Source of the DNA: Asterochloris sp. CNOR1
Lineage: Eukaryota; Chlorophyta; Trebouxiophyceae; Trebouxiales; Trebouxiaceae
DNA length: 64,000 nucleotides
Reading direction: 5' to 3'
Assembly (NCBI GenBank): GCA_963969365.1
Contig: OZ017753.1
Span: 1,550,001 to 1,614,000 of the forward strand
Part shown: one piece after another, positions 3,056-55,861 of the stretch
Layout: each line of letters starts with the position of its first letter
Numbering within the stretch: the stretch's first letter is position 1
Notes under the pieces: generated by a model
What the model saw: only the letters and a program-made list of their open reading frames with translations
Told to the model about the DNA's origin: nothing
Database searches by the model: none
Position numbers and translations under genes: made by a program

Positions 3056-6000
3056 CTACAAGTTGTCTATGAGCCAGTTGAGGTGCGCCCTCAGCTGCCT
3101 AGCAGCAGGCAGTGGCAGATCTCTTGGTACTCCTACTCTGTCCCTCAAGTATGAGGCGGCCGCGACGACAGGGCTGCCTGGCAAAGACTCTGACTCATAG
3201 TCTGCCTGCTGCAGCTTGTGCTGAGGCTTCTGCTGCTCGTCTGGCCCAATCAGCAGGGCCTGGGCCACATGTCGCAGACCTGCAGCAAAAGCAGAATGTA
3301 AAGATGCTGGAGCAGGTCACGTGCACCCTGGTGGTGTGAGGCAGACAATGCTCAGCTTGCCTGCATCAACGGCAGGGAGGTGCTCCATGCCAGGCTTGGC
3401 TGAGGGGTCAGACAGCGGCGCCATCACGGGACGGCTGCCTCTCTGCCCGCAGCCGCGCGCAGCAAACCTGACAACTGCCTCATGATTGCTCACAAGGCGT
3501 GTGGCAGCCTGCAGGCGGTCCCGCTCTGGCTGCTCACCTGGAGAAGGGACAGGCCTTGCAGGGCAGCTCACACGTGCTGATGTGCACACATGTGTTGCTC
3601 ACGTGCCAGCAGCCAGGACTGCATGCTGTGGACACAGGAGCTGGCTGAAGTCCTGCATCCCTCCATGCTGACGCTTGCACAGCACTGCCTCCCAACGCAG
3701 ATGGAGTTGTGGCCTCATGCCTTCCAGCAGGATGAGGTGGGACTGGGCGGCATGCTTCAAGAGATCATGTCTGCTGCCTTGCCAGAACTCTGAGTGCAGC
3801 TCAGGAGCAGCCTGAGCAACGGCCGTGCCAGCAGGGGCTGAATTTGTCAGATGCCATGTGTGGGGCCTCACCTGGTGAGTGCGGCTCGAGAGACGTGCTG
3901 CTCAGGTGTGGTAAGGGGAGGTGCCAGCTGTGGCCATCCGTCCCATCAATGGCAGCAGCAGCTTCTGCTGCCTGCGGGACAGAGACGCAGCCTGCAGGCA
4001 GCAGGGGCACGCTCATGTCACCTTCAGGCTGGACTTAGGCACAGCCTGCTGCAGCACACCAAGGAGGCAGCACAGCTGCGACCCTGCTGCCAGGCGCTAC
4101 CCACATGATCTGTGCCATGACAACGAGCGGCAGCCCACCTCCAAGCTGAGGTGGCAGGTCGTGGACATGTGTATAGTAATCAGACTTGATTCCAAGGAAG
4201 GCTGGCCGCTGCTCCATGGCCTCAAACCACCTGCGGCAGACAGGACTCCTTGATGGTCGACTGCAAGGGATGCTGCCACCACACAGCTTGCACCATCAGA
4301 TGCGTCGGCCAGACCAATGCAGCTCAGGGTTATGGCCAGACATGCAACGCCGGCCAGAGCTTTATGAGCATGCAGATGCATGCATGAAAGACTGCTGATG
4401 TTCAGTTGGGGCACACAGAGGGAAGGCAGCAGGTGTGCACAGCAAAATCTGCGGCAGCGCTTCTCTGGGTGGGACGCGGGGAGGGGTTGGCATGCTGTTG
4501 CTGCAGACCTCAAGGCATCCATATACAGCAGGCACATGCAGAGGTGATGGCTCAAGGGCCTCTCCCGGTCTTAGGTGAGATCACTGAATGCTGCTGCAAA
4601 CCACCCATCCATCTGCCCCCCAGCCACACTAGCACATAGCACACACTTGGCACACAGTTGCTGCAATAATTCAGTCAACATGGGGCGACACTGGGGCTAC
4701 TGGTGCATGCACAGCTCATTTGTCAATGAGGGGAAACTGGCCTGCGAACCCCAAGGCGCCTTTCCATGCACATGCACATGCGCATCATGTAATGCCTGCA
4801 ATGCTCACTGCTCAACATGCGGAAAGTCGGGCTGCTGCCTGGGCATATGGGCACTGGTGCAGTGCTCACCGGTCGACGTGGGGGAACTGGCCGCTGCCAC
4901 GGACCTTAAGGCCCTTATAGTACAGAATGGAGGCAGCAATGCGCTCCAGGAAGGGGGCAAACACCAGGTCAGGCATGGAGATGTCAGCCCCCATGAAGAA
5001 GGGGCTCCCATGGGCTGCCAGCTGGGCGTCCACCTCACCCATGACTGCCTGGAAGCTGGCTGCGCCCTGCTTGTGGTTCCTGCAGGGCCAGCACCGTTGA
5101 GGGTCAGAGTTGTTTGCAAGAAGGCTACCCAATGACAGAAGGTGGCCACCTGGAGGTTGATCGAACCCTGTGAGTATTGCCAATAGATGGGAGAGATGTG
5201 ACCAGGCCTGAGCCGAGGGAAGATGGGCGTCCACCTCCCCCAACACTGCGCATGTGGTACATGCAGTTTGGGAGTGGGGCGTAAGCACATAATTGGAGTG
5301 GCTCTGCCCCATCTGGGGCTTAGCAGGTGACAGCCGAGACAAGTTGTCTGGCAACCTCCCCGATGGTTGCCTTGAAAGTGGCTGCCTTGTCCATGTCATG
5401 TTGAGATAGCAAAGCGTTGGCAGGGGGCGTGACTTCAGCCTGCAGCCCTCCCACAACAGCTGGCGGCCCATCAAGTGCACTGGCGCCCAGTCAAGTGCTC
5501 TGTAATTATAAGCAATAAGAGCGTGCAGCAGAAGCACCCAATGTGCCTGGTACAGCCACAGCAGCCCGGCCCTAAGCAACTGGCACTCCTGAGCCAGCCA
5601 GCCAATTGGCCATGCAAGGTCGACATCAAGTTATCAGTGTCAGCAACGGTGCAGTCCACTCACCAGGCCTGGCACAGCCACTGCAGCCACGCCCCAAACA
5701 GGCGGCGCTCGAGGGCCAGCAGCTGGCGGGCGCGCCTGTCCTCTGGGCTGCCCTCAGGCCAGGGCATCATGGGGCGCTGGGGGAAGGCAGCCTCCAGCTT
5801 GTCCATGATGGCAGCAGACTCTGTGGTGAGCTTGCCGTCCATCTCCAGGACAGGCAGCAGGCCAGAGGGCACCTGCAGGCAGATGTTTTGGTGGTCTGGA
5901 TGAACTGAGAGGCAGCTTTTGCTATTCATTTCTACATCAAGCAACAGGCGGGAGGGTACCTGCAGGCAGGTGCTGCAGCTCTCAGATGACGAGTGAGAGG

Positions 6001-7133
6001 CACAGACAGCAGCCAGACCAGGCAAGAGGTGGCCGCAGGTGTCTAGGACGGGGACGAGATGAGGGCAGAGGACACCTGCAAGGGAGCTGTGTCATCAAAG
6101 CCTAACACGCAATGTGCACATGCTGTGTGACCGGGTGGCCGGCAGGGATGGCTGGCCATGGGACAGCAGCAGGCAGGAGCCCTGCTGCAGGTGAGGTGAG
6201 AAAGGAGCAAGCAGTCAAGATTCAAGCATCCTGAAATTGCTAAGGGCGTCTGGCAGCTTCTGGACGACATCAGCAGGGAGATCAAATAGTAGTTGCCCAC
6301 CAGCAATGCAATGTCAGGGCGGACCCCAGTGTTCACTCGGTGGACCCCAGTGTTCACTCGGTGCTGCACCCGGGCAGGCCGCACCTTTGCAGTGAACTCC
6401 CTGGGCTTATCACCATAGCAACGCATGTTGATCTTCTCTATTGTATAGGGGATCTGCTTCTCCTCCAGCTGCAGGAACACCTTGTGACCTGCATCCACGC
6501 AGAGCTGGCAGCGGTGTCAGCGATCCATGGTGGACTGTGCCACCAGCAGCAGCATCAAGAGGCAGCTCTCAGGAACGGCAGGCAAAGGGCGGGGGCCAGG
6601 CAGCAGGGGAAGCCACAAACACTGCATGACTTACAGTACGGGCACCAGGCGGCGGAGTCCCTGCAGCAGGCGGCAGGCATGGTATGTGAGGTGTCAGCAG
6701 GCATGGCATCTGCACACCACTGGAGTGCAGTTAGCAGTCAGTGGGGCATCATTGCAACACATATTCCTGTGCAGCACTGGCTGCACTGCATCACACACAT
6801 GCGGCCTGCACCTGTACAGCTTGATCTTTGGCTCTCCCGGCTGTCCAAATGTGCGCTTCAATGACGACACATTTGGAGGACCCTGCAGAAATAGCATGTC
6901 TGTTTGTTGCCAAGGCCACAGTGCGAGGGCCTCAGATGCAGAGCTTGCAGCCTTGCAACACAGCTGCTTGGACTCACTGTGACTGGATCTGGAGGGCTCC
7001 AGCCCAGCTGCTTCTGCTGCTGCTGGACCATGTGCTCCAGCTCAGCCCAGGAGGGGGCAGTGTCCAGGAATGCTGCAGCCTCCCTGCTTGCTGTTGCTGT
7101 GCTACCTGAGGCCTGCAGTGAAGGCAAGGTCAT
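3056..7133 (-). CDS. Glutathione S-transferase family protein with CPYC active site and C-terminal extension
   Basis: Ten exons, 5' to 3': 7133-6978, 6882-6812, 6660-6635, 6488-6385, 5872-5664, 5079-4870, 4230-4139, 3991-3872, 3537-3361, 3279-3056; 462 residues. A thioredoxin-fold N-terminal domain (about residues 70-150) contains YRDSAAWCPYCHKVFLQLEE. The CPYC motif is assembled across a 26-nt microexon. PSGLLPVLEMDGKLTTESA is the glutathione-binding cis-Pro and Glu-Ser region. The all-helical C-terminal domain follows (MPDLVFAPFLERIAASILYY), then a further ~150 residues (KSDYYTHVHDLPPQLGG, NHEAVVRFAARG) ending LNWLIDNL. Plant and algal GST-like proteins with this extension are usually plastidic; the first exon (MTLPSLQAS...) could be a short targeting peptide but that is inference. 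A CPYC site suggests thiol-transferase or deglutathionylation chemistry rather than classical conjugation. The intron after 3361 starts with GC. Introns 4 and 5 hold decayed exon copies. Confidence 0.85.
5229..5400 (-). repeat. Two decayed copies of GST exon 6 inside intron 5
   Basis: On the minus strand, 5336-5400 reads DMDKAATFKATIGEVARQLV and 5229-5285 reads AVLGEVDAHLPSAQA. Functional exon 6 (5079-4870) reads QGAASFQAVMGEVDAQLAAH. Both copies sit between exons 5 and 6 in the same order and orientation, and run into stop codons. A third copy, of exon 5, starts at 5959 (VPSRLLLDVEMNSKS against VPSGLLPVLEMDGKL), 87 bp before the real exon start at 5872, and also follows a ctgcag acceptor. 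Confidence 0.8.
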
Positions 7134-7528
7134 GCTGTGTTCTCCCTAAATGAGGTGGCAGCAGGAGGTGTCCCTGCACTATGTGGCAATGCAAGATACT
7201 TACCTGGCCCAGTGCTTTCTTCAGGCCCTGCATCATGGTGTCCTGGAGACCTGCAGCCTGCACCGTCACCCGGCGATGCTGTGCATTGTTTGGCTGCCTC
7301 TTGTGGGAAAAGCTCCTGTTCAGGCTTTGGGGGCACACTTTGGGGAGCAGATGGAAGAGGACCTGCTGCTGATGCCCAGTGATGTACATGAGAGTGCTCT
7401 GTGTCAAGTGTGGCACCTCCTTTCCTTCTATGTTTATTAAACCCTATCTGCTCATCTGACAGTTGCACAGATCACAGCGGCTTGGGCACTGCCCTGTAGC
7501 AATTGAACCGCGTGCGATTGGCCAACAG

Positions 7529-9267: not shown

Positions 9268-9329
9268 GACATTCTGCAGGGCACACCAGGATCAAGGGGA
9301 TGCGCAGCATTCCTTGACCCTGCTGGCTG

Positions 9330-11780: not shown

Positions 11781-11795
11781 CACGACCTCTCCCCC

Positions 11796-14700: not shown

Positions 14701-17700
14701 ACTGACCAGTGCTATCTCCTGCGTCTACAGGCTGCACCACATGCAAGCGCAGACTTGCTGCAGGTGCTCATGGGCCTGACTGCAGCAAATGTTCCGGAGT
14801 CTGGACTCTTCGTTTGCAGGCTGCACAGCATTCAACTGCACCTGCTCCCAGGCTCACCTACAGCGGGCTGATGGTGGGTGCCCTGCCTGCAGGCTGCGCA
14901 GCCCCAAATATGTGCGCAGCCGTGCCAAAGGGGACCTGGTGGATGACGTCATCGATGTCCTCAGTCTGCGCACCGTGCAGCACTCGGTGGTGGGCTCTGT
15001 GGAGAAGCGTGGCATCAGGTGCGCTGTGACACAGCAGCGGCATCCAGCAGCAGCACATGGCCCACGCAGACTGGCTGCCCTTTTTGCCGTGGCCTTGAGG
15101 CCCTCCTGCCCTGCACACAACCATCACGCCGTTGTGGGTCAATGTGTCCTGTGCTGCTGAGCGCTGATTGCCTCGCGACAACAGGAGGACACGCATCACC
15201 CCACGTGCAGCGACTGCCAAGACCACTCCCTGCACCCTGCAGTGGTGGGCAAAGGAAGCGGGTGAACATCGGCCTGGAGCTGGTGGCCAAGCCCTCCCTG
15301 CTGTTCATGGACGAGCCCACCTCCGGCCTGGACGCCAGTGCAGCAACTGACATTCTGTCTGCCCTGAAGAGGTGAGTCCCACAGCAATGCTGTGCATGAG
15401 GCAGCAGCTGGGTTGCTGCCTGACTCACCGGGAGCACGCAGGGGATCTCTCACCCTTCAAGCAGGCTGCCTGTGCATTACCAAGAGCCAGCTGCGTAGGT
15501 AAGCGCCTCAGCAGCCAGGCACGCCATGCATCAAGCCTGTTTGGGGCCCCTGCTCTGCAGCACAGCCCAGCTCGGCGTGAGTAAGGCTCCATGCAGTGTG
15601 AGCACGCCATGCCGCCACCACCATGTCCTTCCTATCTGCCCCAGCGTGCCTTGAACACCGCACAACTTATCTGTCCATTGCGGCAGCATCACACAAATCT
15701 TCGCCCCTGGTCATTACTCTGCCAAGATCAAAGTAACTGTTACATTCGACCCCTGGACCCGCCGTCTGACCCTGTTGTGCCTCAACCCTGGGGTGTCCAG
15801 TCTACCCTGGAGAGGGACAATCTGAAGCAATGGAACCAACTATGAAGTGGACCATGCTGCATTTTGTGTGTTGCATGTCATCTCTTTTGCACACTTGTGA
15901 TTTGCATCTCGCCCATTCTGCAGATGAGCATCCAGCTCAAGTTGCTGTGTGCGCACCCTCAGCTGCCTGGACACCCCCTGTCATTGCTGTGCCCTGCAGC
16001 ATGGCTGACCTGGGCATGAACATCATCACAGTCATCCACCAGCCCCGCTACTCCATCTTCCGCCTGTTCCATGAGGTGCTGCTGCTGGGCACCTCCGGGC
16101 GCACAGTATACCTGGGGCCCTCTGAGGCAGCGCTGGGCTGGTTTCAGAGCCTGGGCTTCCGCCTGCCCCCCAACGAGAACCCTGCGGACTTCTGCCTGGA
16201 CGTCATCTCGGGCAGCATCCCCTGCGATGGCAAGGCAGACTTTACGCCAGAGGTGGGTCTCCAGCTTTAAAGCGGCTAATGCCTCAATCTGAGATCTGCA
16301 GGCTTATACCCACATTGGGCAGGGGCGCTGGCGAACTTCACGCCAGAGGTGGGAGTCTGGCGTGTTGCCATGCTAATGCTGATTTTTGCCAAGGAGGGGG
16401 CGATGCTGTGGACTTCCGGACCTCTGCAGCAGCAGGTTGCTCCTCTGTCAACAGCGAAGAACATGACCCTTATGCCTAAAGAACCTGCTGATAGCCTCTA
16501 GCTGGGCATGAGGGCAAGGCTCCATGAGCAGCATGGATTGGGGTCTACACAAGTTCATGTGAAATCGATGCGGCGCAGGTCACTGATGAGCTGCATGCTG
16601 CCTCTACATCATTGTAGGCACGGCACTGTTCTGCGTCTCAGTGCCTGTGTGGAAGTGCTGTGCAGCTGCAGGACTCAGCCGATCCAAACCACAATCAGTG
16701 CAGCCCTGCTCTTTGCCAGGCCTGCCCTCATTGGCAGCCTCTGTGCCAGTGCAGGACCTATATGGTGTGTGGGTGGACCAGGGCTCCACCTGGCTGGCAG
16801 CCCTGCAGGGTCAGCAGGAGGCAGAGGGGAAGAGCAGGCGGGCGGCAACCCCCGCCAAGCTGCCCCGCCCGCAAGCTGACACCACGCTTAGCCCCGAGCA
16901 GTTGCAGCTCATCATAGACCACTTTGAAAAGGTAGGGTCTCAGAATGGAATGGAATGGGCTCAGCTGCCGGGTCATGAAGGTGTCTGGCCGGGGTCATCA
17001 ATGAAGATGCGCTGACATGCCAAGCTGGGACTCAAGACCCTTGCTAACTTCACCTATCTGTAGAGGCCCCATGGCAGGCCCCACGGCCATGCATTACAGG
17101 CCACATCAGCCACAGCCTGCTGCCTCTGGAGCCGCGCCATCTTGCCACCCGGCCACGCCGGGCCTGCACAAAAGGGCTGCATGACATGATCTGGTCCCTG
17201 CAGGTGGATGCCAGCCGCAGCGGTCGCCTGACTGCGCTGGACATTGCTGCCTTCCTGCAAGATCTGGGGCTGGACCCCACGGCGACTGAGGTGGGGCACA
17301 TTGTGGACGAGCTGGACTGGAGCGGGGCAGGCGTGGTGACCAGGTGAGGGCTGCAACTGCAGGGCCAGCCCCGGAGCGTGGCCATCAGGCATACTTGCTG
17401 TTGTATCAGGGCCGTGGAGCCGAGCAGGTGGGGTGACCATGTGAAGGGCCACATCTGCTGGGCCAGTGCTCCTGAGAACAGCCATCAGGCGGACCTAGTG
17501 GTGTACCTGGGCGTGTACTTGAGCTGACTCTGGTGTTCAAGCTTCCCTCGGCTGGTAGCTGCAACCTGAGAGACATGGCCTGGTCTGGAGACACTCACAG
17601 GGCCTGCCTAGCTTCTTGAGAAACTGGGAGCCTGAAGCCCACAGTTACTCTGTGTGGGTACGCAGGTCAAAGGTAGCTCTTGTTCAGCAGATGTCTTGGT

Positions 17701-20700: not shown

Positions 20701-23198
20701 AACCTTGAGTGCCGGCCCTGCTGGCATGCCTTTCTGGGTTGCGTGCTGCTGAAGAGGTGCTGAGCTCCTGATGCACGCATTCCCGCTGCCAATGCGTCAC
20801 AGGCCTGGCAGCCTTCCTGGCCCTACATGCAGAAGTCCTGCTGAAGCACAGCGGCCAGTCTGCGCTCCGCTCTCAGGGGACCGGACGCACCTGCGCTGCA
20901 GGCCTCCACACCTCTGCCTTCTTCTTTGGACACGCCACCCTGCACATGATCGACATTCTGGTGCAGCCAGCCATCTTTCTGTCAGTCTACTACACCCTCA
21001 CACTGCCAGAGATCAGGTTCCTGGACTACTACGCAGGTGCGCTGCATGTCTGGTGGCTCTTGGACACCTCTGTCCAGCTTTGGCTTAGGGAGGCGAGTCG
21101 CCTATGGCTGTGCTGCGCGGGCGCTGCATCGCTGGGCAACAGCTCTGCCGCTGGTGCACTGGCCATGCTCAGTGTGCAGCATGCTGTGGAGTCCTGCCTG
21201 CCTCTTGCCTGCTCCTGCAACAGACGTCTGGCTGTACAATCACAAATGCTGGCACCAGCAGCACCGCTTGCGCCTGGCTGCATTTGGTCTGGGCAGTATC
21301 TGAGCAGAGCTCATGGCCCTGTGTGCCAGTGCGCCCCGCAGTGGCTACGCAGGTCACCTCATGCACCTCAGCACACACCTCAAGTCCTGGATGCTTGAGG
21401 TTGCCAGGTCTTGACGGCCGTGTTCAGCTGTGCAGTAGCTGCGCAGGTCACCAGGTACACCTCAGCGCTCAGCCTCATGTGCCAACATCCAAATGTCACA
21501 GGTGTTGACGCCCCTGTCTGGCTGCGCAGTGGCTGTGCTGGTGACCTGGTACACCTCCGGGCTTAGCTACTTCATGTCAGTCGTGCTGGCCCCCCAGAAC
21601 TCGATGGTGGCGGCAGTGGCCAGCTGCATGGTGCTGGGAGGCTTCCTGAACGGGGTGGAGCCACGATTCAAGGAGCTGAGCAATCTCATGAAGGGCTTGG
21701 TTGGTGAGCAGAGGCCCATGCAGCTCGTCGCAGCGTCTGCGCTGTATTGACACTGAGTGCTCCAGAAGGAGCGCCTGCCTGTTGGGGCAAACATCACACC
21801 AGAGCTGCTTAGCCCCTGTCCTGCAGGTCTTGTGGCATCCCTCTGTCTTCAGTCTGCAGCAGCCCACAATGAGATGCCTGAGCCAAGGACATGGGTCCTT
21901 GGCCCCATGTTGCTGTGCTAAACTTTCGCTGCGTTCAACAAGCTGGGGCTGCTCCTGGTCCCATACCTTTCGAGTTGCTACTCTACTGGCTGGGGACTCA
22001 GCGTGTGCCTGCAGGTCTCAGCTATGCTCACTGGAGTACAGAGGCCATCACAGTGCAGGAGTTCAGCCAATACGCCTTCTACATGCAGCCCCGGACCCAC
22101 CTCATCCTTGATCAGGTAGGGCACATCATCAGTGCCTGGCCCGAGGTGCTGAGGCATGTGCTGCAGTGCTACCTGGCTCAGCTGCTGCAATTCACAGCGG
22201 TGACCAGACAGGACACCTCCCCTTTGGATCATTGGTAGCAGGTTGCGTGGCCCTTGAGTGTATCTCACGGAGATGCACTGGCAGCTGAGCTCTTTCTGCG
22301 CTGACAGCTGCCCTCTCACCTGTCCCCTGGCATCCAAGGGCAGATGTTGTGCTTGGCTAGGTGACTGGTACTCTGCCAGTCTGCATGAGCCGGGCGGTCG
22401 AGGCTGCCTGCTGTGCAGGTGGGATTCTGTGGCCTGGACAAGGCCAGCAACAGCCCACACAGCACCTCTCAGTTGGATGTCAGGACCATCTGCAAGGGAT
22501 ATGCGGGCTTTGATCTTGCCATGATAGTCCTCCAGGTGCGCTCTCTGCCCAGGCTGCCCGGCAGAGCCAGTCCTCACGCAGGTCTGTGCCTGGCTAAGCC
22601 TGTGTCGGCAGCCTGTAAACTTGCATTGAATAATCAATTCGGCGTAGACTGTCACACAGGCAGGCGTAGGTGGCCTACTTGCTGTTTGCTGCTGCTGATC
22701 GCTGGCATGCCACATCACCATGGCGCATGGAGCTGCAGTTGCATCTTGCATGATCTACCAGAACGACAGCAGTTCTCCTGGCAAGCACCACTTCCAGAGT
22801 GCATGCTGCACCCTGCATCTTACCTTGCGGCTCTCGAAGCATCATCTCTTTGCGTTACAGACACTCAGCAATGCAGCTGACCCATATCTAATTGCTGGCG
22901 GCAGCACCTTGCCATGTGCCAATATCCGCCCCTGCAGGGCTTTGTCTGGCGCTTCATGACCTACCTGGGCCTGAGGTACTGTAACCAGCGCAGCAAGCGT
23001 ACCCCTTTGGCCCGCATGTTCACCCTCATGTGGCTGGTCCTCACCAGGGCTAAGCGCAAGTGGCAGCGCTGGCAGGGCAGCTTCAGGCAGCCAGAGGTTG
23101 ATGCCGACTTGGGCCTGAAATCAGACCAGGCTGCATCTGGCGCCTGGACACGACCACAGACGTCGCCAAACGGACTTGCTTCCCCCCTACTTATTTGA
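11796..23198 (+). CDS. ABCG-type (ABCG24/28-like) transporter with cysteine-rich N-terminus and inserted EF-hand-like pair
   Basis: Exons: ~11796-11870, 12073-12291, 12494-12766, 13067-13278, 13636-13855, 14017-14047, 14172-14299, 14493-14548, 14893-15018, 15243-15371, 16000-16252, 16755-16931, 17204-17343, 17753-17902, 18240-18618, 18845-19154, 19762-19938, 20480-20626, 20902-21036, 21530-21703, 22015-22115, 22419-22535, 22938-23198; at least 1304 residues, first exon(s) unresolved. Order: Cys-rich EGF-like repeats ([26 protein letters not shown]), a first TM helix, then the nucleotide-binding domain with Walker A GPSGAGKTT, signature [10 protein letters not shown], Walker B LLFMDEP, D-loop SGLD and H-loop VIHQPR. 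Next come two EF-hand-like loops, a long Ser/Gly/Pro linker, a basic segment and the six-helix ABCG transmembrane domain. Matches the plant ABCG24/26/28 group, which act at the plasma membrane or endomembranes; substrate unknown. Confidence 0.9.
21342..21578 (+). repeat. 94-bp tandem array ending in an ABCG exon
   Basis: Three copies start right after cag at 21342, 21436 and 21530, exactly 94 bp apart. The third is the real exon (tggctgtgctggtgacctgg). The first two are degenerate (tggctacgcaggtcacctc; tagctgcgcaggtcaccagg) and keep an AG acceptor plus roughly 45 bp of exon-like sequence. The copy at 21436 has an in-frame TAG at the corresponding position. Confidence 0.85.
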
Positions 23199-30500: not shown

Positions 30501-31649
30501 TGCAACGGGTATGTGTCGGCCATGACAGCTTGGGCAGGGGCCACTCAGCATTCCTTGCAACAGGTGCCTGCAGAACTCAGTCGCCTGGGGGTCATGCATG
30601 AAGACAGGGGACAGACGCCCGCAGGCTGGGACACACCTTCCTGTGTAGGGGAGCCACCAGAAGCAAGCTGGCTGGCAGCTGAGTGCTGCTGCTACTCACC
30701 GTGGGCGCCATGGCGGCCGGCTGCAGGGCCCAGGGCTCCTTCAGGACGCCAAAGATGGCGTGCTGCAGCACCCGCTGCCGCTCCGCCAGCGGCCGCTCCT
30801 CATAGAGAGTCAGCAGAGTCATGGGCAGGGCAGCCACAGCGGCTGGCTGCAGCTGCTCCGCATCCCGTGCGAGCTGCAGCAGGGGCAGCAACTACCTCAT
30901 CATCAGCAGCACAGCCTCAGCTCCAGCAGCCTGCAGTCCATGCTGGGTCACGGGCAAAGCAGCAGCCTGCCACTGCTTTGCATTCGGTGTTAGCTGCACC
31001 TTGAAGCAAGGAGAAGCGCCATTGGCAACCCCATCAGCCATGTGCAGTGCATGCAGAATCATGGGCAGGGCAGTCGGCTGGTTGCGGCTGCTGTGCAAGT
31101 TGCTAGCATGGGCACAGGGACCTGAGCACAGCTAACAGCAGCATGCCGTGCATACAGCGTCAGGGGCAGGGCAGCAATGGCAGCTGGCTCCTGCAGCTCT
31201 GCGTCTCGCTGAAGCTGCAGGATGCGCACAAGATGGGACCCATAGCAACTCAGCAATGCGTGCACAGTGCAGCGGGCAGCAGTGCTGCATGCCTGTCACT
31301 GCAAACTGCAGCCATGCTCACAGACCACCGATGGGGAAACTGTGCCAGCACATCTGCAGGGGTTATGCACCTCCCAGAGGTCCTCAATCGACCTTGCATC
31401 CCTCAGCTTTCTCTGAAACTCTGCATCTGCCATCCTGACAAGGTCCTCCCTGCGATAGTCCTGCCTGCCAGCGGAGGAGCTGAGGGCTGAGGACATGGCA
31501 CTGCTGCCATGTGGTTGCTGCTGCGGTGCCTGCCTCGGCCTTCGGGGCTCGCCTGTATGCTGTGCAGGAGGAGCAGGCTCCTCCTGCCGTCGGCGCTTGT
31601 TCTGCCTGGCAGGGCGCCTCCTTGCCTGTTTGGGCCTGGCAAACTGCGC
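24562..31649 (-). CDS. Octotricopeptide-like repeat protein with C-terminal RAP domain (organelle RNA metabolism)
   Basis: Exons, 5' to 3': 31649-31371, 30873-30700, 30474-30316, 30096-29800, 29169-29015, 28755-28632, 28354-28169, 27878-27729, 27498-27276, 27001-26796, 26417-26247, 26035-25835, 25517-25329, 25038-24562; about 996 residues plus an unresolved N-terminus. A possible extra exon lies near 26600-26450. The N-terminal part is basic (ARPKQARRRPARQNKRRRQ), consistent with a transit peptide plus linker. The body has helical repeats of the form xxIAWSxxxLG: INIVWGFAKLGKY, YANIAWSMGQLGLEWP, LSMAIWSFAAHRDYQP, LAVIIWGLGGLDHRP, AHLLWGLATVDEEVP. The end carries a RAP domain (VAVEVVACHQGIRNRHRTL, then VLEADGWKVYHVWRQHWASL). 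Such OPR/RAP proteins bind specific chloroplast or mitochondrial transcripts for processing, stability or translation. The target RNA cannot be read from sequence. Two introns contain tandem exon-fragment arrays. Confidence 0.85.
29631..29840 (-). repeat. ~57-60 bp degenerate tandem array next to a RAP-gene donor site
   Basis: Units begin near 29631, 29691, 29751 and 29808. The last is the functional exon end (fwd tttgggcgccctcagccgca) and the others are altered versions (gttcagggccccccagctgc; gacacaaggcgccccgctgc; gtctggggtcagggtgctg). Weaker copies appear to continue leftward to about 29378. Confidence 0.65.
30805..31218 (-). repeat. Four copies of a RAP-gene exon segment at ~100-130 bp spacing
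   Basis: The functional exon (from 30873 downward) encodes LARDAEQLQPAAVAALPMTL. The minus strand of 31150-31218 encodes LQRDAELQEPAAIAALPLTL. Two more decayed copies centre on 30960 and 31070. A shared core (fwd gtcatgggcagggcag and variants) recurs near 30818, 30946, 31058 and 31159. All four lie in one intron plus its downstream exon. Confidence 0.75.
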
Positions 31650-31957: not shown

Positions 31958-34056
31958 ATGCCATCACACGACATGCCTGCTGGGAAACGAGAATCAGGTG
32001 AGGCTTTGCATGGTCACTGCGCTTTCTGATGATTTTCATGCAGCAGTCAACCTAGCTTGTCTGCCACGTGATGCAGAGAGGGAGCCAGAGGAGGAGCACA
32101 TTGCAAAGCGTCTGAGGAGTCAGTCAGGACCCAGCAAGTTGCCAAACGGAACCACACAACCGGACCCCTTCTTTGACAATGCTGAGCTGGAAGCCATCCC
32201 AGAGCAAGGTGAATTGCAGTAGATGGCCTCATGAGTATGCGAGGACCCGCTGTTGGCAGCTCCTAACACCTCATCTGCGCATGCTGCCTTATGTGTCCAC
32301 ACTTCTTCCAGGTCTGAAAGACAACACGCCTGAGACACTCACTGAGGATCAGGTCCTGCAGCGGCGAGCTGCACGAATGAAAAAGCTGCAGCAGAAGTAC
32401 CAGGTAACAACTTGCTGGAGATGACGTCCTGTACGATGCACAAGAGTGCTGCATGCATGCAGCAAGGTCACTTTGCTCTGCCTGGCACAACTGGCTGCCA
32501 TGCATGCCAGCGCTTCAGTCTGCCTGACTGCAGCTGGTGGTCCTGCCCTTACTTCTGCTGCATGCACACTGCTGAAGCAAAGCTCAGGCCATGCCCTGAC
32601 TTGTGGTGCCTTTCCATGACACAGCACACCGTACCCCTGCTGCGTATCTGCCTACAGCAGGGAGACTTTCAGCCTGCTCAGTGTGGGCCGGGGTCCCAGG
32701 CATGCAGCAGAACTCCTTCAGCCTGCCTGACTCCTGCTGGCCTCTCCTGCCTGCAGCAAGAGTACTTCAGCCTGCTCTGCGAGGTCCAGGTGCGCCGCCG
32801 GGTGCCCAGGGAGCCCTCATCCCCCCGCAGGAGGGACCCTGATGCCCCTGCCAGCCTGGAGGAGCTCTGGCAGCGGCAGCAGCAGGAGGAGCAGGGCGTT
32901 CAGCAGCCTGCCTGCAACGGCAGGGTTCAGGGCAGCATGGAGAATGGGCAGGGGCCAGCCAAACGAGTGCGCTTCATGGGCGCACAGGCAGAAGGTAGCT
33001 CAGAGCGCAGTGGCGGCAGTGCCCAGGTGGGCCAGTGCTGTTTGCAATGATTTCCTGGGCAGTGTAGATGACAACTCCTCAGCTATGAGGCTGGCAGAAC
33101 TGCTGGATGCTTGTGCCAAGCTGTGCGCAAGTTGCCCCTGTAGGCTATGCCCACAAGTCTGAAGACAAACGTGACTGCGCTCTGCAGGCCCTGCCCACTG
33201 CTCTGGAGGCTGAGGGGCTGCTGGCTAGCTGCATGTGCTGAGACATAGCTTTAAATGTCTGCACCTGCAGAGCTTTTGACAATCCAGGATTCAGAAAGGA
33301 TTGCTGTGCGTAAGCGTTCTGTCACTACATGCTCTGTTCAATGAGCAATGCCTCTTGTCCCACTTCAGGCCCTGCCCACACTTCAAGAGGCGGAGAGGCT
33401 GCTGGCCAGCGCCGAGCAAGCCGGTGTACCCGCCAGCAGGCAGATGGTTGTGGAGCAGCGGAACAAGTTCAGGCAGTGCCTGCCTGAGCTGAGCCGGCTG
33501 GAGCAGACTGCCTCCACGGCCACAGCCCGCGAGTTGGATGCCTGCCAGGCGCTGGCTTGTCTCAGCTCTCGGCGCTGCAGGTGGCTGGTCAAGCTGTCTG
33601 CAGTCACCCTTGGCAGGAGCACAACCAGCCATGGAGAGGTGAAGGCTAAAGCTGCCTCTGCTTTGCTGCCATGTGCTAGCCAGATTGTCCAACCATGCTT
33701 GGCTCTGTTGTAGTGCTGCTGCTTTGTGAAGCTCTGTGCAACAGCTGAATGCACATGGCTGCAAACTCTGCCGCGTACTTGTGCTGCAGGTGGACATTGA
33801 CCTTGCAGCCGAGGCAGATGCCCACAAAGTCAGCCGACAGCAGGCGCAGCTGTCCCTCCATGCAGACGGCGTCTTTCGGCTCTGTAACGTGGGGAGACGT
33901 ACAGTTTTTGTCAATGGCAAGCCGCTAGGGCGATTTGACAGCACACGCTTGGAGCACCTCAGTCTGATTGATGTGGGCAACATTCAGCTGTTGTTCATGC
34001 TCAATCAGCTCGCAGTGGGCAGGCTAGTCACCCGCTCTGCCAATGTAACATTATAA
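31958..34056 (+). CDS. FHA-domain protein, microspherule protein 1 (MCRS1)-like
   Basis: Exons 31958-31997, 32077-32208, 32312-32403, 32757-33026, 33369-33638, 33790-34056; 356 residues. The start is MPSHDMPAGKRES. A nuclear-looking basic stretch (AKRLRSQSG) and a charged region (ERRAARMKKLQQKYQ-like helix, residues about 65-90) follow. The last exon is a C-terminal FHA domain: VDIDLAAEADAHKVSRQQAQ (the conserved R-Q loop), LSLHADGVFRLCNVGRRTVF, VNGKPLGRF, then FMLNQLAVGRLV. This arrangement, FHA at the extreme C-terminus with VDIDL at its start and a closing FxxNQ, is that of MCRS1 and plant homologues. Those are subunits of INO80/NSL-type chromatin complexes, so a nuclear phosphothreonine-reading role is likely. 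Introns 3 and 4 contain decayed copies of the following exons. Confidence 0.83.
32464..32790 (+). repeat. ~50-bp tandem copies of FHA-gene exon 4 start
   Basis: The real exon starts at 32757 (cag then caagagtacttcagcctgct). Degenerate copies follow an AG at 32708 (cagaactccttcagcctgcc) and 32658 (cagggagactttcagcctgc), a ~50-bp period. More decayed versions appear at about 32508 and 32464. Confidence 0.75.
33188..33238 (+). repeat. Decayed copy of FHA-gene exon 5 start in the preceding intron
   Basis: After ctgcag, 33188-33238 would encode ALPTALEAEGLLASC. The real exon at 33369 encodes ALPTLQEAERLLASA. About 40 of 51 bases are identical by my count. The copy is 181 bp upstream of the functional exon. 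Confidence 0.85.
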
Positions 34057-34209
34057 AGAACATGGCCCCTCCCACAAAAGCAGATGTAACAGCTCTATGG
34101 ACGTCAGGATAACACCAGAAGGCCAAATCCTGACAGCCATGGTAGTCAAGTTCCCCACATAATTTCATGTGGAACGTGTGCACTCACTAGTACTCACTCT
34201 CTGTCATGC

Positions 34210-34995: not shown

Positions 34996-35299
34996 ATCTC
35001 AGCAACCTCTCCTACTACAATGAGTGTTGCTTGCTGTGCGATGCAGTCAACAACTCGAGACAACGAATGGAGGCTGCGAAGGCTCAGCTGTGCGTGTAAC
35101 CACCACCTGCCGGGCAGCACAGATTTCGTTTTGCCAAAGGAAGGGGTTGCCATCTATTTGTGACTTACCTGCAGGACAGGCAGGCATGGCTACAGGCAAT
35201 CCTTGGCAGCGCTGTGCAGCCTGTTTGAGACAGAAATGATTCACCGCGCCTGATGCTGGGCGGCATGGCATCCATACAGCCCTGCTAATCAAGGAGGGT

Positions 35300-46600: not shown

Positions 46601-49279
46601 GCACCTCTGTCCCGTCAAGCTGCACCACCCGGGTCTTGCCTTCGCGCACCGGCAACAACTGGCCAGCTCCCTGAGACCCTGTAGCGGCAGGGCACTGAGT
46701 CATATAGTGGTTGTGCAGTGCAACATCCAGCAGTGTGTTTTACTGAACCTGCTATGGACTGCTTTGCAACGGTCCATTGCCAAGTCTATTCCCTACGTTG
46801 AAACACTCATGCCGGCTGCACAGCAGTATGAGGCTTCAGTATCAGGCATACAGCAAAGCTCTCTGCAGCCCACCATCCAGTCACAATGATGCACCACACT
46901 CACCTGCAGCAGCACCCTCAAGCGCAGCAGCTTCTTGGACCGGCAGTCCCCGCAGAGTGCTGATTGCCTCTGTCCTGTAGAGCAGCCCATCCACCAGGCC
47001 CAGCCTCACAGCCTCTGCTCCTGTGAAGGGGGCTGCATCAAGGGCAGCCCTCACCTGCAGCATGCAGACTGTTCTGCATCTCTAACTGGTTTTACAAGAG
47101 CGCCAGTCTGTCCTTCACACTGCCCACAGGGTGCCTTGAAAAAGTGTGACATGCACTCAGCGGGGCCCCCCAAGCCCTGGATATTGCGAGCTGTTGTACT
47201 CAATGCTGGCGCTAGACTTGGTGCACGTCACAGGGACTCCCTAAACCTCTACCTTCTGTTGGGACAGTCCACGAGCCTCAGCGACGCCTGACACAACCTG
47301 GTCAGTCCAGCCTTGGAGGAGTGCGGTCCAGGCCTCCCTGTTGGGCTGGTTGTACCCTTTGTCCCTTCATGAGCAAATAAAAGCACCTCAACAACTGCTG
47401 ATGGGTACTAAAAGAGGCAATGACAGCCTTTTGTGTTCTGAAAAGCTGCAGGCCGGCATTGTTCTGGCCCACCTGAAGATTGCTATTGCGTTCTTGTATG
47501 ACTCCCTTGTTGTGAAGAAGCTGCAGTGGCAAAACCAGACATGAGCAGTAACATATGCAAGACAGAAACTGCTGCCGGCAGCCTCACAGCAGCTTCTCTT
47601 TACAAGCAACCACTGGTCACCTGCGCACTTTCCACTTGTCAAGAAAGCCTCTCAGAAAGATGCCATTTGCAGCAAAGCCTGCAAGGGGCTCAGCGCACAG
47701 GGCCTCAATCCAGGACCAAGATAAGCCATCAGTACGCTCTGCGGGCAGGCAAAATTGTGCAGGCTGTGTACCCAGCTTCCAACTTGCAGCCGCAACAGCG
47801 GTTGCTGCACATGTGCCGGGGCTGCGCACCTGTGAAGCCCAATATCCCTGATTTCTGCATCCATATTTGCTCAAAAGCAGTCCTGCATGGGCACTCAGGG
47901 CATGTGGGCACTCAGGGCAGGTGAGGCGGCATGCAGATACGTGAGTGGCGGCATGCACCCAGGGCATGTGTGGCGGCAGAAACCACCATGGCCGATACTG
48001 CTGCCAGGACCTTGCTCCATAGAATGCTCTGGCACCCTCACCCCAGGTAGTAGCTGGCAGTGCCGTTGCTGCCCATCTCCCCAAAGGTCTCTGCAAAGGC
48101 CAGGGTGGGCACCCCTGCGTCTCGCCTGCAGGGCAGGCGGAGAGCTGGGTTTTACACGAGACACTGAAAGGGGCCCAGGCTTGCAGGAATTGCACTGTCG
48201 TCAGCCCTTCTTTGCCACAGGCACCAGGGCGAGAGGCACCCCTCCCCCTATGAGGCAGAGCGCATCTGGTCTTCTCGAACGCTGAAAGCAGCACTGCCGA
48301 TATGTGACGGCCAGGCAGCCTGCAGGCACCTGAAGCGCAGCACAGCATCGCGCAGCTCCTGGATCTGAGCCATCTGCCCAGCTGGCTGGCTGCCCATGAT
48401 GCCCACCAGGCCTTTCACCCGACTGTCCTTGCCAGCCTCCTTCAAGGCATGCACTACCTGCAGCAGCATGCCCGGTCCCTGTCAGCGTTGTCTCCTTGGT
48501 GGCTCCAGGCGGCTCCTGCAGGAGCTGCACAAGACAACAGGTCTGCCTAGTGGAGTTACCACTGGCAGCAGCATCCCTGGCCCCTCTCTGCACCAGGTGC
48601 AGGGCACCAAAAGCGTGCCTCAAAGGCACAGGCAGGGCTGCTCAGGTGCATCTGGCCTGGAACCAAGGGGTCATCCTGAACAGTCGAGCCACAGACATGG
48701 TGAGGCACGGCTCCCACTCCGTGCCACATGCTCTTTTGGGACACAGGACTGCACCTGGGGGAGGTGCAGCGAAGGGGGCGTGCCTGCACTGGTCAGCGCT
48801 GCAAAGGGGCTGGGCTGCTGCTCCACAACCTGCACATTCTCCAGGTCCAGCTCCAGCACAAACTTGTCTGGCAGCTTGGTGGCCTTCTGAGTGCGCCTCT
48901 GCGGACGGCATGAAGTGCCTGCTGGGTCCCAGGCTTCATGACGATGGTAGGAGGGCGGGCAGCTTCAGGCAGGTGCGCAAAAAGGGGCTTTGCTCACCTT
49001 TGAGTTGCTCACAGCAACTGCTGTCCCTAGCAGTGACAGGGTGCCCTGCAGCCAGGATCCCCTGTAGGTGAGAGCTATGCGCACATGTTGCTCCACAGGT
49101 CCTCCACAGGAGCAGGAAATACCCAGCAAATGAGACATTTTGTGGCCCCAAAGTGAATGTAAGCAGACTTGCAGTGATGCCTTGCTGCTCACTGTGGCAA
49201 TGAGAGCGCCCTTGCCATAGCGCACAATTCTTTGGAGCAGCCTGGACTGTGGACCAGCTACTGTATGCTCTCCTGACAT
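43660..49279 (-). CDS. SppA: Signal peptide peptidase SppA (protease IV), chloroplast type
   Basis: Sixteen exons, 5' to 3': 49279-48998, 48898-48755, 48457-48330, 48125-48042, 47882-47830, 47678-47621, 47505-47473, 47364-47253, 47054-46904, 46666-46567, 46285-46098, 45863-45735, 45400-45281, 44973-44744, 44379-44218, 43914-43660; 742 residues, a full tandem-domain SppA. A hydrophobic stretch ([15 protein letters not shown]) precedes [18 protein letters not shown]. Domain 1 has FLRGFLDKW and the catalytic Lys region [10 protein letters not shown]. Domain 2 has the nucleophile Ser in [12 protein letters not shown], then [34 protein letters not shown]. It degrades cleaved signal peptides and other membrane-associated peptides. 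In plants the homologue is a light-induced thylakoid protease, so plastid location is likely. The intron after 46098 starts with GC. Two small exons use AAG acceptors. A 33-nt exon carries the catalytic Lys. Confidence 0.93.
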
Positions 49280-50407: not shown

Positions 50408-52071
50408 ATGTGGTTGAGGCTGTCACTAGTCCTCCTCATTGTCGCCTGGACCTGTGATTCAGGATCCCTGCGCAGCATTCAGCTATCGACCCATAATGAG
50501 GACCTCCCAGCCTGTGAGCCCTGCCTGTTGCAGCCTGCTGCATGCATGTGGCAGCCTTGCTTCACCACGCTGAGGCTGCATGCATGATGCCTAGTCAGCC
50601 TGTGCAGAACAGGCTGCACCTGCAGCAGGATGTGGCATGCGGTACAGCTTTGCTTTGCTGCGCCAAGGTTGCATGCATGGCGCCCAGTCAGCACCGGCTC
50701 AGATGGCTGACTGTGCAACAAGGCTGGCAACAAGCAGCGTGCCCTGTATGCAGACTGCCATGGGCGACCCTGCCCTGTGCCCAAGGTGCTGAACCAGACT
50801 GACGCCTATGAAACTCGCAAGTATGGTGAGAAGGTCCAGCTCTGCCTTTCACTGTGCTGCACATAGCTTCTCTGATTTTCACTGTGTGCCCTCAGCTGCT
50901 GCCCCTTCAGGGCTTGAGAAGTGGGTCGCTCTGCCAGGCGAGACCTCAAGATTTGAGATTTCACTCACCCGGGCCTTTACTGAGCTGCTGCGCTACATCA
51001 AAGGCAAGCTGCCAAGCTGGAGCACCTTGCAGCCTCACAGGTTTTGCACCCTGCTGTCTGAGCTAGCGGCATGGCCTTCTCTGAGCCTGTGAGTGCTGGT
51101 GCAGGCAACAACGAGGAGGGTGTCAGCATGGATATGACTGCTCCCATTGCAGTGCGCTGAGCTTTGTCCGACCTGCAAGTCATCTGCAGCATCTCGTCTC
51201 AGGCAGTGCTCAGACCTTGACCACCTGCAGGTCTGGTGCAAAGCAAAGGATGACTTCGGAGGGCTGGAGTCTAACTTCACAGTTGCTGCCTATCTGCCGT
51301 CCAAGTTCCAGGTGCATCTGCTGGGATGGCTGCTGAAGCCTGAGGCAGCCCTTTGTCAAGCTCATGTCGCGCTGGGCACCTGACATTGCACAGGGCAGTG
51401 CAGCACCCTCTGCAGCTCAGACCCTCCCAGGCCAGGTCCACCTCTGCAGGACAAGCCACCAAAGCCCAAGAACCCCAGGCTCATCATCTTGAAGGACCCC
51501 AAGGACGAGAGCATTGTGTATGTGCGCTCCTTTGGTGGCTTCGCCATAGAGAGCACTGTGCTCAAGGAGGCCAAAGCTCTGTCAGAGGCACTGCACCAAG
51601 ACAACGTGCCTCATGAAAAGGTGGGCTTTGTTTGGCCCAGCCTTGAGCTTGATGTGCTGCACAGTGCCAGCTGTACATGTGCCTGATGTGCAGATTGTCC
51701 TTGTTGGACTCCCAGCAAGACATGTGAAAATGTTGTTGTGTTTCAAGTACAGATGGCACAGTGAATGCCTGCCTGATGTGCTGCATATCGCCTGCTGCCT
51801 GAGTGCCACACTGCTGCTTTCCACATCACGCTGCTGCCCCTGCCTCGCAATGTGTGTGACTCTGCTTCTGATTTGCCTGCAGACAGAGTTTGTTTATGCT
51901 GCATATGACACCCCCGAGAGGCTGACTGGAAGGCACAATGAGGTCATCATGTGGCCGCCAGAGAAGAAGGAGGCCATCTCAAACGTTCGGGTCCTCTCTG
52001 CCAGCAGGGACACTGGAGAAGAACTGAAGTTGCCCAATCTGCTTGGCTCTGTTGGCAGCATGCTGGGCTGA
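50408..52071 (+). CDS. SOUL-family heme-binding protein with signal peptide
   Basis: Exons 50408-50513, 50754-50825, 50911-51003, 51105-51151, 51231-51311, 51450-51620, 51883-52071; 252 residues. MWLRLSLVLLIVAWTCDSG is a signal peptide. The mature part has the SOUL landmarks: NQTDAYETRKYG, FTELLRYIKG, then SMDMTAPIA (the family's M-T-x-P-V), ESNFTVAAYLPS, VYVRSFGGFA, and EFVYAAYDTPERLTGRHNEV near the end. SOUL/HBP proteins bind heme or tetrapyrroles. The signal peptide suggests the secretory pathway or vacuole, unlike plastidic members. The intron after 51003 is GC-AG. Intron 1 contains tandem sequence copies. Confidence 0.9.
50548..50715 (+). repeat. 84-bp tandem duplication in SOUL intron 1
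   Basis: Units begin gtggcagccttgcttcacc (50548) and gtggcatgcggtacagcttt (50632). They share tgcatgcat and the agtcagc block further on. A weaker third copy may run into exon 2 (ccctgccctgtgcccaaggt, ~50768). Confidence 0.55.
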
Positions 52072-53327: not shown

Positions 53328-55861
53328 ATTACCTTGCGACTGACAACCTTCCACACAGCAATCATTTCGACACCTTCACGCCAATTGAAAACACCATGTT
53401 CACGTCTGGCGATGTGCTAGACGTTGGCCAAGACAACGGCACAGGGCAAGCAAGGCCCTCTTCCATCCATGACCCTCCCAGCGTGATGCCCCAGGTCAGG
53501 AGTCAGATGCCTGCTGTGGCCAACATGCAGGTGCCTCTCAGCTTCTTGCTTGCAGGCTACATGCTGCACGAGCTTCAGCAGAGATCTGCAACCTCACAGC
53601 ATTCTGCGGCATACGCCATCTTGGAACCAGCCATGCCTCTGATCTCATGCACCCTGTCTGCAGTCAACATCTCAAGCCATCCCCAGCAGCATTCATGATC
53701 CGCCTTCAGTAGAGGACATCACGACAGAGGGGCTGGCCTATCAGAATGACATTGACCACCTGCAGCAGCAGATCGCGTCACAGCTGGAGGGGCAGGACAC
53801 CCAGACAGTCTCTGAAGCCAAGGCTGCAGTGCAGCAGATGGTGCAGCAGTACCAGGGCACAGCCAGCATGCCCCAGCTCATCCAGGTGAGGCCCAGCAAG
53901 GTTGTTTGCAAAGGACCCGTTCACCAAGATCTTCCAGTCAAGTGGGGCCACAGTGGTGCTGCGGTGTGTGCGCCTTCGCAGCAGCCTCTTGACATCTTGA
54001 TGGGGTTCCTCATGGGGCACTCGCTCTACAGGTTGAGTTGGCAGGCACAGGGCCAGAGTCCTGCAGGCATTAGTGATGGTGCATCCTCACACAGCCAGCC
54101 TGGAGGCGTGTGTCCTCAGGCCCTGCACCTCCCTGCTCAGCACGGGGTCGCTGGTGCCATGCTGGCGTCTCCAGGCCAAACGCAATGGGATGGCTGCTGC
54201 TACGCTGGCGTCTTCAGGCCCTGCAGCTTGCCGCCGCCCATCCGAGGGTGGCTGCACAGGCACCTGCGTGGTGTGCCAGCACCACAGCTCTGTCCTCTTA
54301 AAACTCCTTCACGTCTGATTGTGCCTTGGGCCTGCAGGCTGCCCAGGAGGCTGTGCAGGAGGTGCTCCACGCGCAGGCCAGCAGGGACAGGCTGGTGGCT
54401 GCAGCTGACCAGCAGGCGGCCTACCAGTCCTACGTGCCTGCTGCAATCTCGGGCATGGGGGCAGCTGTGGCCAATGCAGCCTCCTCCATTGTTGGCGGCG
54501 GCGACGTGAGTGCCTGCGAGATGCTCAATGGGGACAGGCAGGCCAGCTCATTCATGGCATTAAGCTGTGCGGGTTAGAGGCGCGTGCTCGACACATTCCT
54601 TGGTGTGCTCACAGCCAGCCAAGGCCCAAGTGTTGGGGTGTTGTTGATGGTCTCTGGGCTGCATGCCTGGTGCTGGCATTTTTGAGGAAGTGCGTTGCAG
54701 GTCCAGCGCTGCCTGTTGTGGCCCCTGGTTGACCTTGGCTTGCTGGTGATGTGCACACACAATGACTTCTGCTGGCTCATGCTAATTCACCCCTGCCTGG
54801 TACAGGTGAATGATATGGTCCGTGAAGAGGAGGGGTCTATGGCAGCTGAGGATGTGGTGCATCCTCTGCGGGCGCTGGCACAGCAGGCCTACAGCCAGGA
54901 TATGACCAGCCACGCTGCCAACCAGGCCGGCCATGCTGAACAGCAGAGGTCAGTCGCCCAGGCAGCTGCCTGTGCAGCGTCATAGGTTCTTGCTGCCTGC
55001 AAGTGCAGTGCTGCTGCCGGTACCTGTACACTCCTTTGAGCGGCCTGGCCTGTGTGGAATGCGGTGTGCAGCGCAGGACGCAACCATCCATCAGCCCCGA
55101 TCTTGCTTGTTCAGGCAGGTTGTGCCGATTTGCTGCTCAGCAGCAGGGCGTGTTTTGTCCCCTGTGCACCCCTCTGCAGGCTGCCCAGCATGGACGCGCC
55201 GTGCCTGCAGGCAGGTGGCTGGCGGCCCCGACAACTGGGACACCAGCAAGCAGAACTCCCAGGCCGGCTCGTACAACACTGTGGGGCCCACGGGGGATCC
55301 AGAGGCGCACCAGTATGCTGAGCGCGACATTGAGCGGGCCAGGCAGGTCTGGGACGGGCAGACAGAGCGGGGCATGCTGCTCAAGGAGACCAGCCTGCAC
55401 AAAAACACGGTGGGTGGGGCCTGGCACTGGAGCGATGCTGTCCTGCTGGAGTTGGGGCATGCTGCTGAGGTGGCGCATAGAACAGTGCACACAGGGAGCT
55501 GGCTAGTGCTCGAGTTGTGGGGGGGCGTGCCAGTGCCTGATGAGCCTGCAGAAGGCTGCTAAGCTGAGCTCACCCATCCTGCCGCAAGGTTTTTAGGGAG
55601 GCGCCAAAGCAGGGCTATAGCACAACTGGTTGGCCCTGTGCTGCTCTTGTGCATGCCAGGGAGCCAGTGGGGTGATTAGATGCATCAGATGTTGGAGTGA
55701 AGCGTAGTACCAGACTCTCATGCCAATTGCTGCAGACATCAGCTCACTCCAGCTCCTATGAGGACCATGTTCACAAGGACAGCGGCCACCACACTCTGGA
55801 GGGAGACGCAGCCTTTTCTGGTATGGAGGCTGCCCGTGCCAGAGCAAGAGCCCCATTCTAG
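53328..55861 (+). CDS. Unrecognised Ala/Gln-rich, mostly helical protein; 5' end unresolved
   Basis: Exons 53328-53494, 53664-53885, 54338-54505, 54806-54948, 55211-55409 and 55736-55861 chain in phase, giving at least 340 residues. Features: an acidic, polar opening (SNHFDTFTPIENTMFTSGDV); an internal duplication (PSSIHDPPSVMP, then PSSIHDPPSVEDI); long Gln/Ala helices (DHLQQQIASQLEGQ, AVQQMVQQYQ, AAQEAVQEVLHAQASRDRL); a small Gly-rich stretch (ISGMGAAVANAASSIVGG); HPLRALAQQAYSQDM; a hydrophilic region (DNWDTSKQNSQAGSYNTVG, AERDIERARQVWDGQTERG); and a His-rich end. The composition resembles LEA-like or organelle-associated helical stress proteins, but no family motif is recognised. Confidence is in the gene, not in a function. 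Confidence 0.55.

What the first reader, a model, noticed from the sequence alone, without database searches (positions are those of the whole stretch)
5229..53700. Introns built from tandem, decaying copies of the neighbouring exon's splice junction
In at least eight introns across seven genes (GST, ABCG, RAP twice, FHA twice, CDPK, SOUL) the intron holds one or more degenerate copies of the acceptor (or donor) plus the first or last ~30-70 bp of the adjacent exon. Copies are in the same orientation and at a locus-specific period. Copies closest to the exon tend to be best preserved, and most keep the AG or GT. The simplest reading is that introns grow by repeated short tandem duplication spanning a splice site, after which only one copy is used. 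I know of intron gain by tandem duplication, but a genome where this seems to be the routine mode of intron expansion would be notable. It would also create many cryptic or alternative splice sites.
Basis: partly seen in the sequence, partly recalled or inferred. Interest (0 to 1): 0.85.

Follow-up and report, generated by a model that had tools for sequence, protein, structure and literature searches.

The report
Introns swollen by old local duplications
In this green-alga genome many introns carry decayed nearby copies of their own splice junction and neighbouring exon, most likely because short stretches of DNA of around 100 letters were once duplicated locally wherever they lay, and copies that landed in introns were tolerated and lengthened them.

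Summary
Direct repeats at lags 40-400 bp far exceed inverted ones (225 v 5 segments) and, at score >=16, are absent in three tested bands at 2-6.4 kb. Introns resemble their own flanking exons about 10-fold or more above other introns or shuffles (SW>=160). With strict gene models 43 of 206 introns carry a copy (10 of 49 in the window, 33 of 157 elsewhere), 35 of them junction copies. Donor and acceptor sides are hit about equally (48, 53), and copies wholly inside introns occur too. In the full set the junction share is what random placement gives; in the strict set a modest excess remains after correcting for slower decay. So most of the effect looks like position-blind local duplication, modal lag 80-120 bp, filtered by selection. 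Nearest copies are not better preserved; AG/GT retention fits drift; the AGGT intron-gain signature is not enriched, so this is intron growth. Copies are mostly old, and many do not fill the lag, so some events may be spaced rather than strictly tandem. The genome looks like Asterochloris (inference).

The parts
21405..21567 (+). ABCG gene: intron copy 21405-21473 aligned at lag 94 to the true acceptor (exon starts 21530) and exon head 21499-21567; a further copy 21337-21369 at lag 188
   Evidence: scores 34.5 and 16.9; intron 21037-21529; ABC-2 membrane domain
33182..33410 (+). FHA/kinase gene: intron copy 33182-33229 of acceptor plus exon head 33363-33410, lag 181
   Evidence: score 27.3; FHA domain
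32700..32775 (+). FHA/kinase gene, second intron: weak acceptor copy at lag 49 (acceptor 32757)
   Evidence: score 15.5
5545..5720 (-). GST gene: exon tail (5667-5720) copied in the intron at 5545-5598, lag 122; by eye the GT is lost in the copy
   Evidence: score 24.1; GST domains
5020..5385 (-). GST gene: head of the next exon (5020-5063) copied in the intron at lags 201 and 322
5832..5972 (-). GST gene: acceptor copy at lag 87 (acceptor boundary 5873)
   Evidence: score 21.8
1487..1578 (+).
   Evidence: score 18.2
16234..16353 (+). ABCG gene: donor copy at lag 96 (donor 16253)
   Evidence: score 17.1
17318..17447 (+). ABCG gene: donor copy at lag 97 (donor 17344)
   Evidence: score 19.2
29523..29849 (-). 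RAP/FAST-like gene: pairs at lags 57, 114, 173 and 230 running from an exon tail across a 93-bp intron
   Evidence: exon assignment in 29545-29706 uncertain
30813..31228 (-). RAP/FAST-like gene: acceptor plus exon head with copies at lags about 120, 240 and 341; the outermost pair scores best (30.3) and that copy may itself be an exon
   Evidence: the stretch has one match in the genome
37147..37461 (+). CDPK-like gene: donor copy at lag 284 (donor 37167) and intron-internal pairs at lags 95 and 207
   Evidence: one match in the genome
44136..44244 (-). Gene model 40047-49279: donor-side exon copy in the intron, lag 79
   Evidence: score 20.8
48453..48591 (-). Same gene model: acceptor copy at lag 105 (acceptor 48458)
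   Evidence: score 15.6
50552..50692 (+). SOUL gene: intron-internal duplication, lag 93; no exon copy at this threshold
   Evidence: score 22.7; SOUL domain
6318..6363 (.). A young, near-perfect true tandem duplication, unit 21 bp; whether it is exon or intron is uncertain

Best explanation
The copies are decayed products of short, local, same-orientation duplications that struck nuclear DNA largely regardless of gene features. Shown: the excess is local and directional, lags peak at 80-120 bp, exon-exon pairs survive almost only at multiples of three, and exon-intron pairs fall about equally on donor and acceptor sides at close to the rate that intron and exon lengths predict. Inferred: the duplications arise by error-prone repair of staggered breaks or paired nicks (fill-in, then end joining). 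A unit spanning an acceptor or donor is kept because splicing can still use the outer site next to intact coding sequence. The inner copy joins the intron and drifts, lengthening it and leaving cryptic splice sites. A first duplication makes later ones at the same junction more likely, which gives arrays.
For: Local excess, none at score >=16 in the 2-6.4 kb bands; 225 direct v 5 inverted; own v other exon similarity; 48 donor-side v 53 acceptor-side pairs, 88 of 101 crossing exactly one predicted boundary; junction share near the geometry and decay expectation in the full set; exon-exon lags multiple of three in 28 of 32, P 3e-10, v 41 of 101 junction and 24 of 74 intron-internal; 52 of 128 primary lags lie at 80-120 bp although simulated detection rises with unit length; AG/GT retention near neutral; 15 of 84 exon anchors have two or more copies v about 2-3 expected if independent; four stretches searched genome-wide matched only themselves.
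Against: Aligned stretches are short (median 36 bp) and fill only 0.29 of the lag; simulated tandem units matched for identity fill 0.36-0.62, and even simulated spaced copies 0.31-0.41. Similarity beyond the aligned stretch is seen in 26% of flanks v 36-46% for simulated tandem and 6-11% for simulated spaced copies. So a share of events may be spaced copies made by template switching. In the strict set junctions keep a modest excess (35 of 43 introns v 28-29). Hit introns are longer, but a long intron also offers more room for a hit, so length alone does not prove growth. Breakpoints of the decayed copies were not analysed. Young copies are too few: 10% of 163 at >=0.92 identity v 23-53% in uniform-age tandem simulations, so the process is not at steady state. 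The repair pathway is inferred from the literature, not tested.
Confidence: 0.75

Rival explanations
1. Splice junctions are a preferred target of duplication (for example through RNA-DNA hybrids or a splicing-coupled step).
For: Strict set: 35 of 43 introns junction-type v 24.7 by geometry, and v 28-29 after decay correction, P .014-.032; with all strict-set introns as target P .004-.011.
Against: Full set: 100 of 165 v 90.7 by geometry and 103-108 with decay correction; donor and acceptor sides about equal; intron-internal and exonic duplications also occur.
Confidence: 0.12
2. Short segments were copied to a nearby site with a spacer (template switching or templated insertion) and not as head-to-tail units.
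For: Aligned length does not scale with lag (medians 33-40 bp in all lag classes from 80 to 600); flank homology is lower than in tandem simulations and the filled share of the lag is low.
Against: Flank homology is well above null (24.6% v 4.2% at >=120 for lags >=50) and above the spaced simulation; some loci show near-full units, such as L021:1702 by eye and L024:2403-2516; almost only direct orientation.
Confidence: 0.25
3. Exons and introns only share composition and splice consensus (CTGCAG, pyrimidine runs).
For: The acceptor consensus is strong, CTGCAG|G.
Against: Other introns of the same genome, with the same consensus, match far less; no segment of score >=16 in the far bands.
Confidence: 0.01
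4. The copies are introner-like or other dispersed elements.
For: None found.
Against: Four of four stretches searched give only the self match genome-wide, though that search skips very common words; copies resemble their own exon.
Confidence: 0.02
5. Dead copies of exons or of protein repeats (as in RAP/OPR-type genes), not junction duplications as such.
For: At RAP 30813-31228 the outermost copy is read as an exon by the gene finder; 13 of 519 exon tails resemble the next exon head at SW>=160 v 4.4 expected.
Against: Lags of exon-intron pairs are not restricted to multiples of three (41 of 101); 88 of 101 cross a single boundary.
Confidence: 0.06

Closest known systems
Small tandem duplications from end joining of breaks with complementary overhangs (PMC8355091; abstract and Introduction read)
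   Same: Short, local, direct duplications, said there to be the commonest short (<100 bp) insertions in the human genome, with hints of the same in plants
   Different: Here mode 80-120 bp, old and decayed, in an alga; pathway untested, breakpoints not analysed
Tandem duplication across an intron-exon boundary in a potato RdRp gene (PMC4974935; abstract and Results and Discussion read)
   Same: Duplication spans the 3' splice site and exon head; the same gene also holds an 83-bp tandem duplication inside an intron
   Different: There the event made a new intron; here existing introns appear to have grown and many genes are affected
[quoted passage not shown] Drosophila cases PMC2891723, passages seen)
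   Same: Raw event is a local tandem duplication of exonic DNA
   Different: Signature at lag equal to intron length not enriched here
Direct repeats near intron borders (PMC11782384; abstract and first part of Results read)
   Same: Direct repeats near splice sites
   Different: Those are 4-30 bp pairs linking the two ends of an intron; here mostly 20-80 bp copies of one junction or its exon inside the intron
Human introns from tandem arrays, Zhuo et al. 2007 (seen only as a reference in PMC3488318)
   Same: Title links introns to tandem arrays
   Different: Not read

Membership tests
Short local tandem duplication | Excess confined to short lags and direct orientation | tested here: met
Short local tandem duplication | Copies adjacent, unit length equals lag | tested here: inconclusive
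   flank homology between tandem and spaced simulations
Short local tandem duplication | Breakpoint microhomology or fill-in signature | not tested
   few young copies; alignment lengths of high-identity clusters were listed but breakpoints not analysed
[quoted passage not shown]
   206 introns, summed matches >=18 in 9 v 10.3 expected, >=22 in 0 v 0.65
Introner elements | Similar introns or inserts dispersed in the genome | tested here: not met
   four stretches only
Splice-site-targeted duplication | Junction share above random placement | tested here: inconclusive
   no excess in the full set once decay is allowed for, modest excess in the strict set
Functional alternative splice sites | Splice dinucleotide kept above neutral expectation | tested here: inconclusive
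   AG 21 of 26 v 17.3; GT 16 of 24 v 17.5; no clear excess
Functional alternative splice sites | Use in RNA | not testable with these tools
   no RNA data

The most novel reading that the evidence does not exclude
This algal lineage went through a period of intense local duplication with a characteristic lag near 100 bp, now largely quiet, which supplied much of the length of its longer introns and seeded the genome with duplicate splice sites; the residual excess at junctions in the strict set could mean that splice-site-bearing units were also favoured.
Probability: 0.35. Interest if true: 0.7.

Novelty: new variant of a known kind. Interest (0 to 1): 0.5.

Why it matters
How introns lengthen without transposons is hard to see because both copies of a duplication rot. 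Exon-anchored copies keep a conserved reference, so this genome may let the size, age and position of such events be read, and it supplies a natural set of duplicated splice sites for testing how the spliceosome chooses between near-identical sites.

Tried and rejected
First gene-finder training collapsed into tiny exons and was redone with a stiffer intron cost. In one search a number overflow turned the gene orientation of a few long pairs; the corrected count is (donor 48, acceptor 53 in place of 52 and 49; AG/GT retention, 18 of 22 and 15 of 22, replaced by 21 of 26 and 16 of 24). Totals of pairs and the geometry were not affected. In one search, 1 of 27 acceptor clusters and 0 of 24 donor clusters had no scorable site. 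A second retention count on the strict set, allowing a shift of 3 bases, gives AG in 13 of 17 and GT in 8 of 14 (of 24 acceptor and 18 donor events, those whose copy reaches the junction). Ungapped flank profiles first suggested that similarity stops at the segment ends; gapped flanks and simulations put the truth between tandem and spaced. A global autocorrelation by lag was too blunt to estimate decayed copies. A periodogram of lags departs from a smooth null but its best period (158) has no clear meaning; I use the plain lag mode instead. A half-against-half test put own similarity above the control 95th percentile in 18.9% of 175 introns (5% expected). The AGGT intron-gain signature was sought and not found.

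Limits: gene models are my own HMM without RNA evidence. It calls only 5% of bases intergenic, against about 26% printed for A. glomerata (PMC6652019, passages), so some 'introns' in the full set are intergenic; the strict set (206 introns, both flanking exons >=45 bp with coding score >=8, intron <=1000 bp) was made for that reason and drops 576 of 782 predicted introns. Clusters were merged by rule and low-complexity segments dropped before counting. 334 kb is 0.6% of the genome. No algal genome for comparison was used, so 'unusual for this lineage' is not shown.

Literature: searches (open-licence PMC only). In those listings (10 to 20 entries each) I saw no report of decayed splice-junction copies as a genome-wide feature of green-algal introns; most entries were seen as listing and abstract start only. 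Other works on short local duplications and intron creation by duplication are known to me only from memory and are not relied on.
Full report
What was checked. The window is G000:C8:1550001-1614000 of a 56.38 Mb genome in 21 contigs. Besides the window I read 27 further 10-kb stretches from all 18 chromosome-size contigs, 334 kb in all. The genome size, contigs of 110,056 bp and about 215 kb (by subtraction from the lengths) and 58% G+C in the window fit Asterochloris glomerata as printed in PMC6652019 (56 Mb, mitochondrion 110,932, chloroplast 217,546, G+C 56-62%; passages). That it is an Asterochloris is my inference.

The repeats are real and local. Counting ungapped similar segments by lag, score >=16 gives 28 segments in the window and 91 in the first 18 loci at lags 51-300, and none in three bands between 2000 and 6400. 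Direct orientation outnumbers inverted 225 to 5 at lags 40-400. Four stretches searched against the whole genome matched only themselves.

They involve the intron's own exon. I trained a simple gene-finding HMM on the 334 kb; it gives a sensible splice consensus and proteins in which Pfam recognises GST, ABC transporter, FAST-like, FHA, protein kinase and SOUL domains (seven pieces given). For 519 introns, similarity to the own next exon head at SW>=160 occurs in 4.4% v 0.3% with other introns or shuffles, and to the own exon tail in 4.0% v 0.4%; at >=120 the excess is only 14.8% v 7.5% and 11.2% v 8.0%. In a strict set of 206 introns, 43 carry a near duplicate, 35 of junction type; the rate is the same in the window (10 of 49) and outside it (33 of 157).

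Where they fall. In gene orientation the 239 clusters comprise 48 exon-then-intron (donor side), 53 intron-then-exon (acceptor side), 74 intron-internal, 32 exon-exon and 32 mixed, both-sided or intergenic (correcting). Units of the observed lags dropped at random would give donor .17, acceptor .172, intron-internal .28. An exon-anchored copy decays mainly on one side, and simulation puts its detection 1.37-1.53 times higher. With that, the full set is at expectation (100 of 165 v 103-108) and the strict set keeps a modest excess (35 of 43 introns v 28-29, P .014-.032; 42 of 56 events v 37-38, P .10-.19; taking all strict-set introns, hit ones too, as the target, P is .004-.011 and .03-.07). 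Exon-exon lags are multiples of three in 28 of 32, so selection seems to remove frame-breaking events, while exon-intron and intron-internal lags show no such rule (41 of 101, 24 of 74).

What the copies look like. Aligned stretches have a median of 36 bp at lags 50-250 and median identity 0.81. The shortest lag per locus has a clear mode at 80-120 bp, 52 of 128, though detection in simulation generally rises with unit length. Fifteen of 84 exon anchors have two or more copies v about 2-3 expected if events were independent. Copies near the exon are not better preserved; at RAP the outermost copy scores best. Splice dinucleotides are kept at about the neutral rate. A third to a half of the strict-set copies that reach the junction still resemble usable sites (6 of 17 acceptor, 7 of 14 donor).

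Tandem or spaced. Alignments fill only 0.29 of the lag, less than in either simulation. Gapped comparison finds further homology beyond the segment in 26% of flanks at lags 50-250 (the chance rate in the similar set is 4%), against 36-46% for simulated decayed tandem units and 6-11% for simulated spaced copies. I read this as mostly old tandem units broken by indels plus some spaced copies. Young copies are too few for a steady process: 10% of 163 at >=0.92 identity v 23-53% in the tandem simulations.

How much of the intron it explains. Detected copies cover 5.1% of intron bases. Hits rise with intron length, from 0 of 26 below 120 bp to 23 of 44 at 400 bp or more, which fits growth but also reflects the greater room in long introns.

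What it is not. The signature of intron gain by duplicated AGGT is not enriched. Composition and splice consensus do not explain it. Dispersed elements are not seen at the four stretches searched.

Conclusion. Short local duplication, of a kind known from break repair (PMC8355091, abstract and Introduction) and seen across a splice junction in potato (PMC4974935, abstract and Results), has left a detectable mark in about a fifth of well-supported introns and half of those of 400 bp or more. Splice sites are caught mostly because units of ~100 bp are large compared with introns of ~200-300 bp. Whether splice junctions have any extra attraction, and whether this alga differs from others, stays open.

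Noticed in passing
window 31973-39880 (+): One gene model joins an FHA domain, a protein kinase domain (Pfam) and EF-hand-like motifs (seen by eye), an FHA-CDPK-like fusion. The model has one in-frame stop.
   Followed up: partly
window 16755-17780 (+): An EF-hand-pair-like stretch lies between the ATPase and membrane domains of the ABCG protein (PF13499 28.9 bits, just under its cut-off of 30).
   Followed up: no
whole sample: Acceptor consensus is extended, CTGCAG|G (T .86, G .91, C .94 before AG).
   Followed up: no
window 53440-53710 (+): The peptide SSIHDPPSV occurs near the end of one predicted exon and near the start of the next, on both sides of an intron.
   Followed up: partly
L013:545-750: Nearly identical 68-bp copies, among the youngest arrays found, spanning a predicted exon end and intron.
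   Followed up: partly
514 predicted introns with flanking exons >=40 bp: Predicted intron lengths show a peak at 60-100 bp and a weak second rise at 200-280 bp.
   Followed up: no
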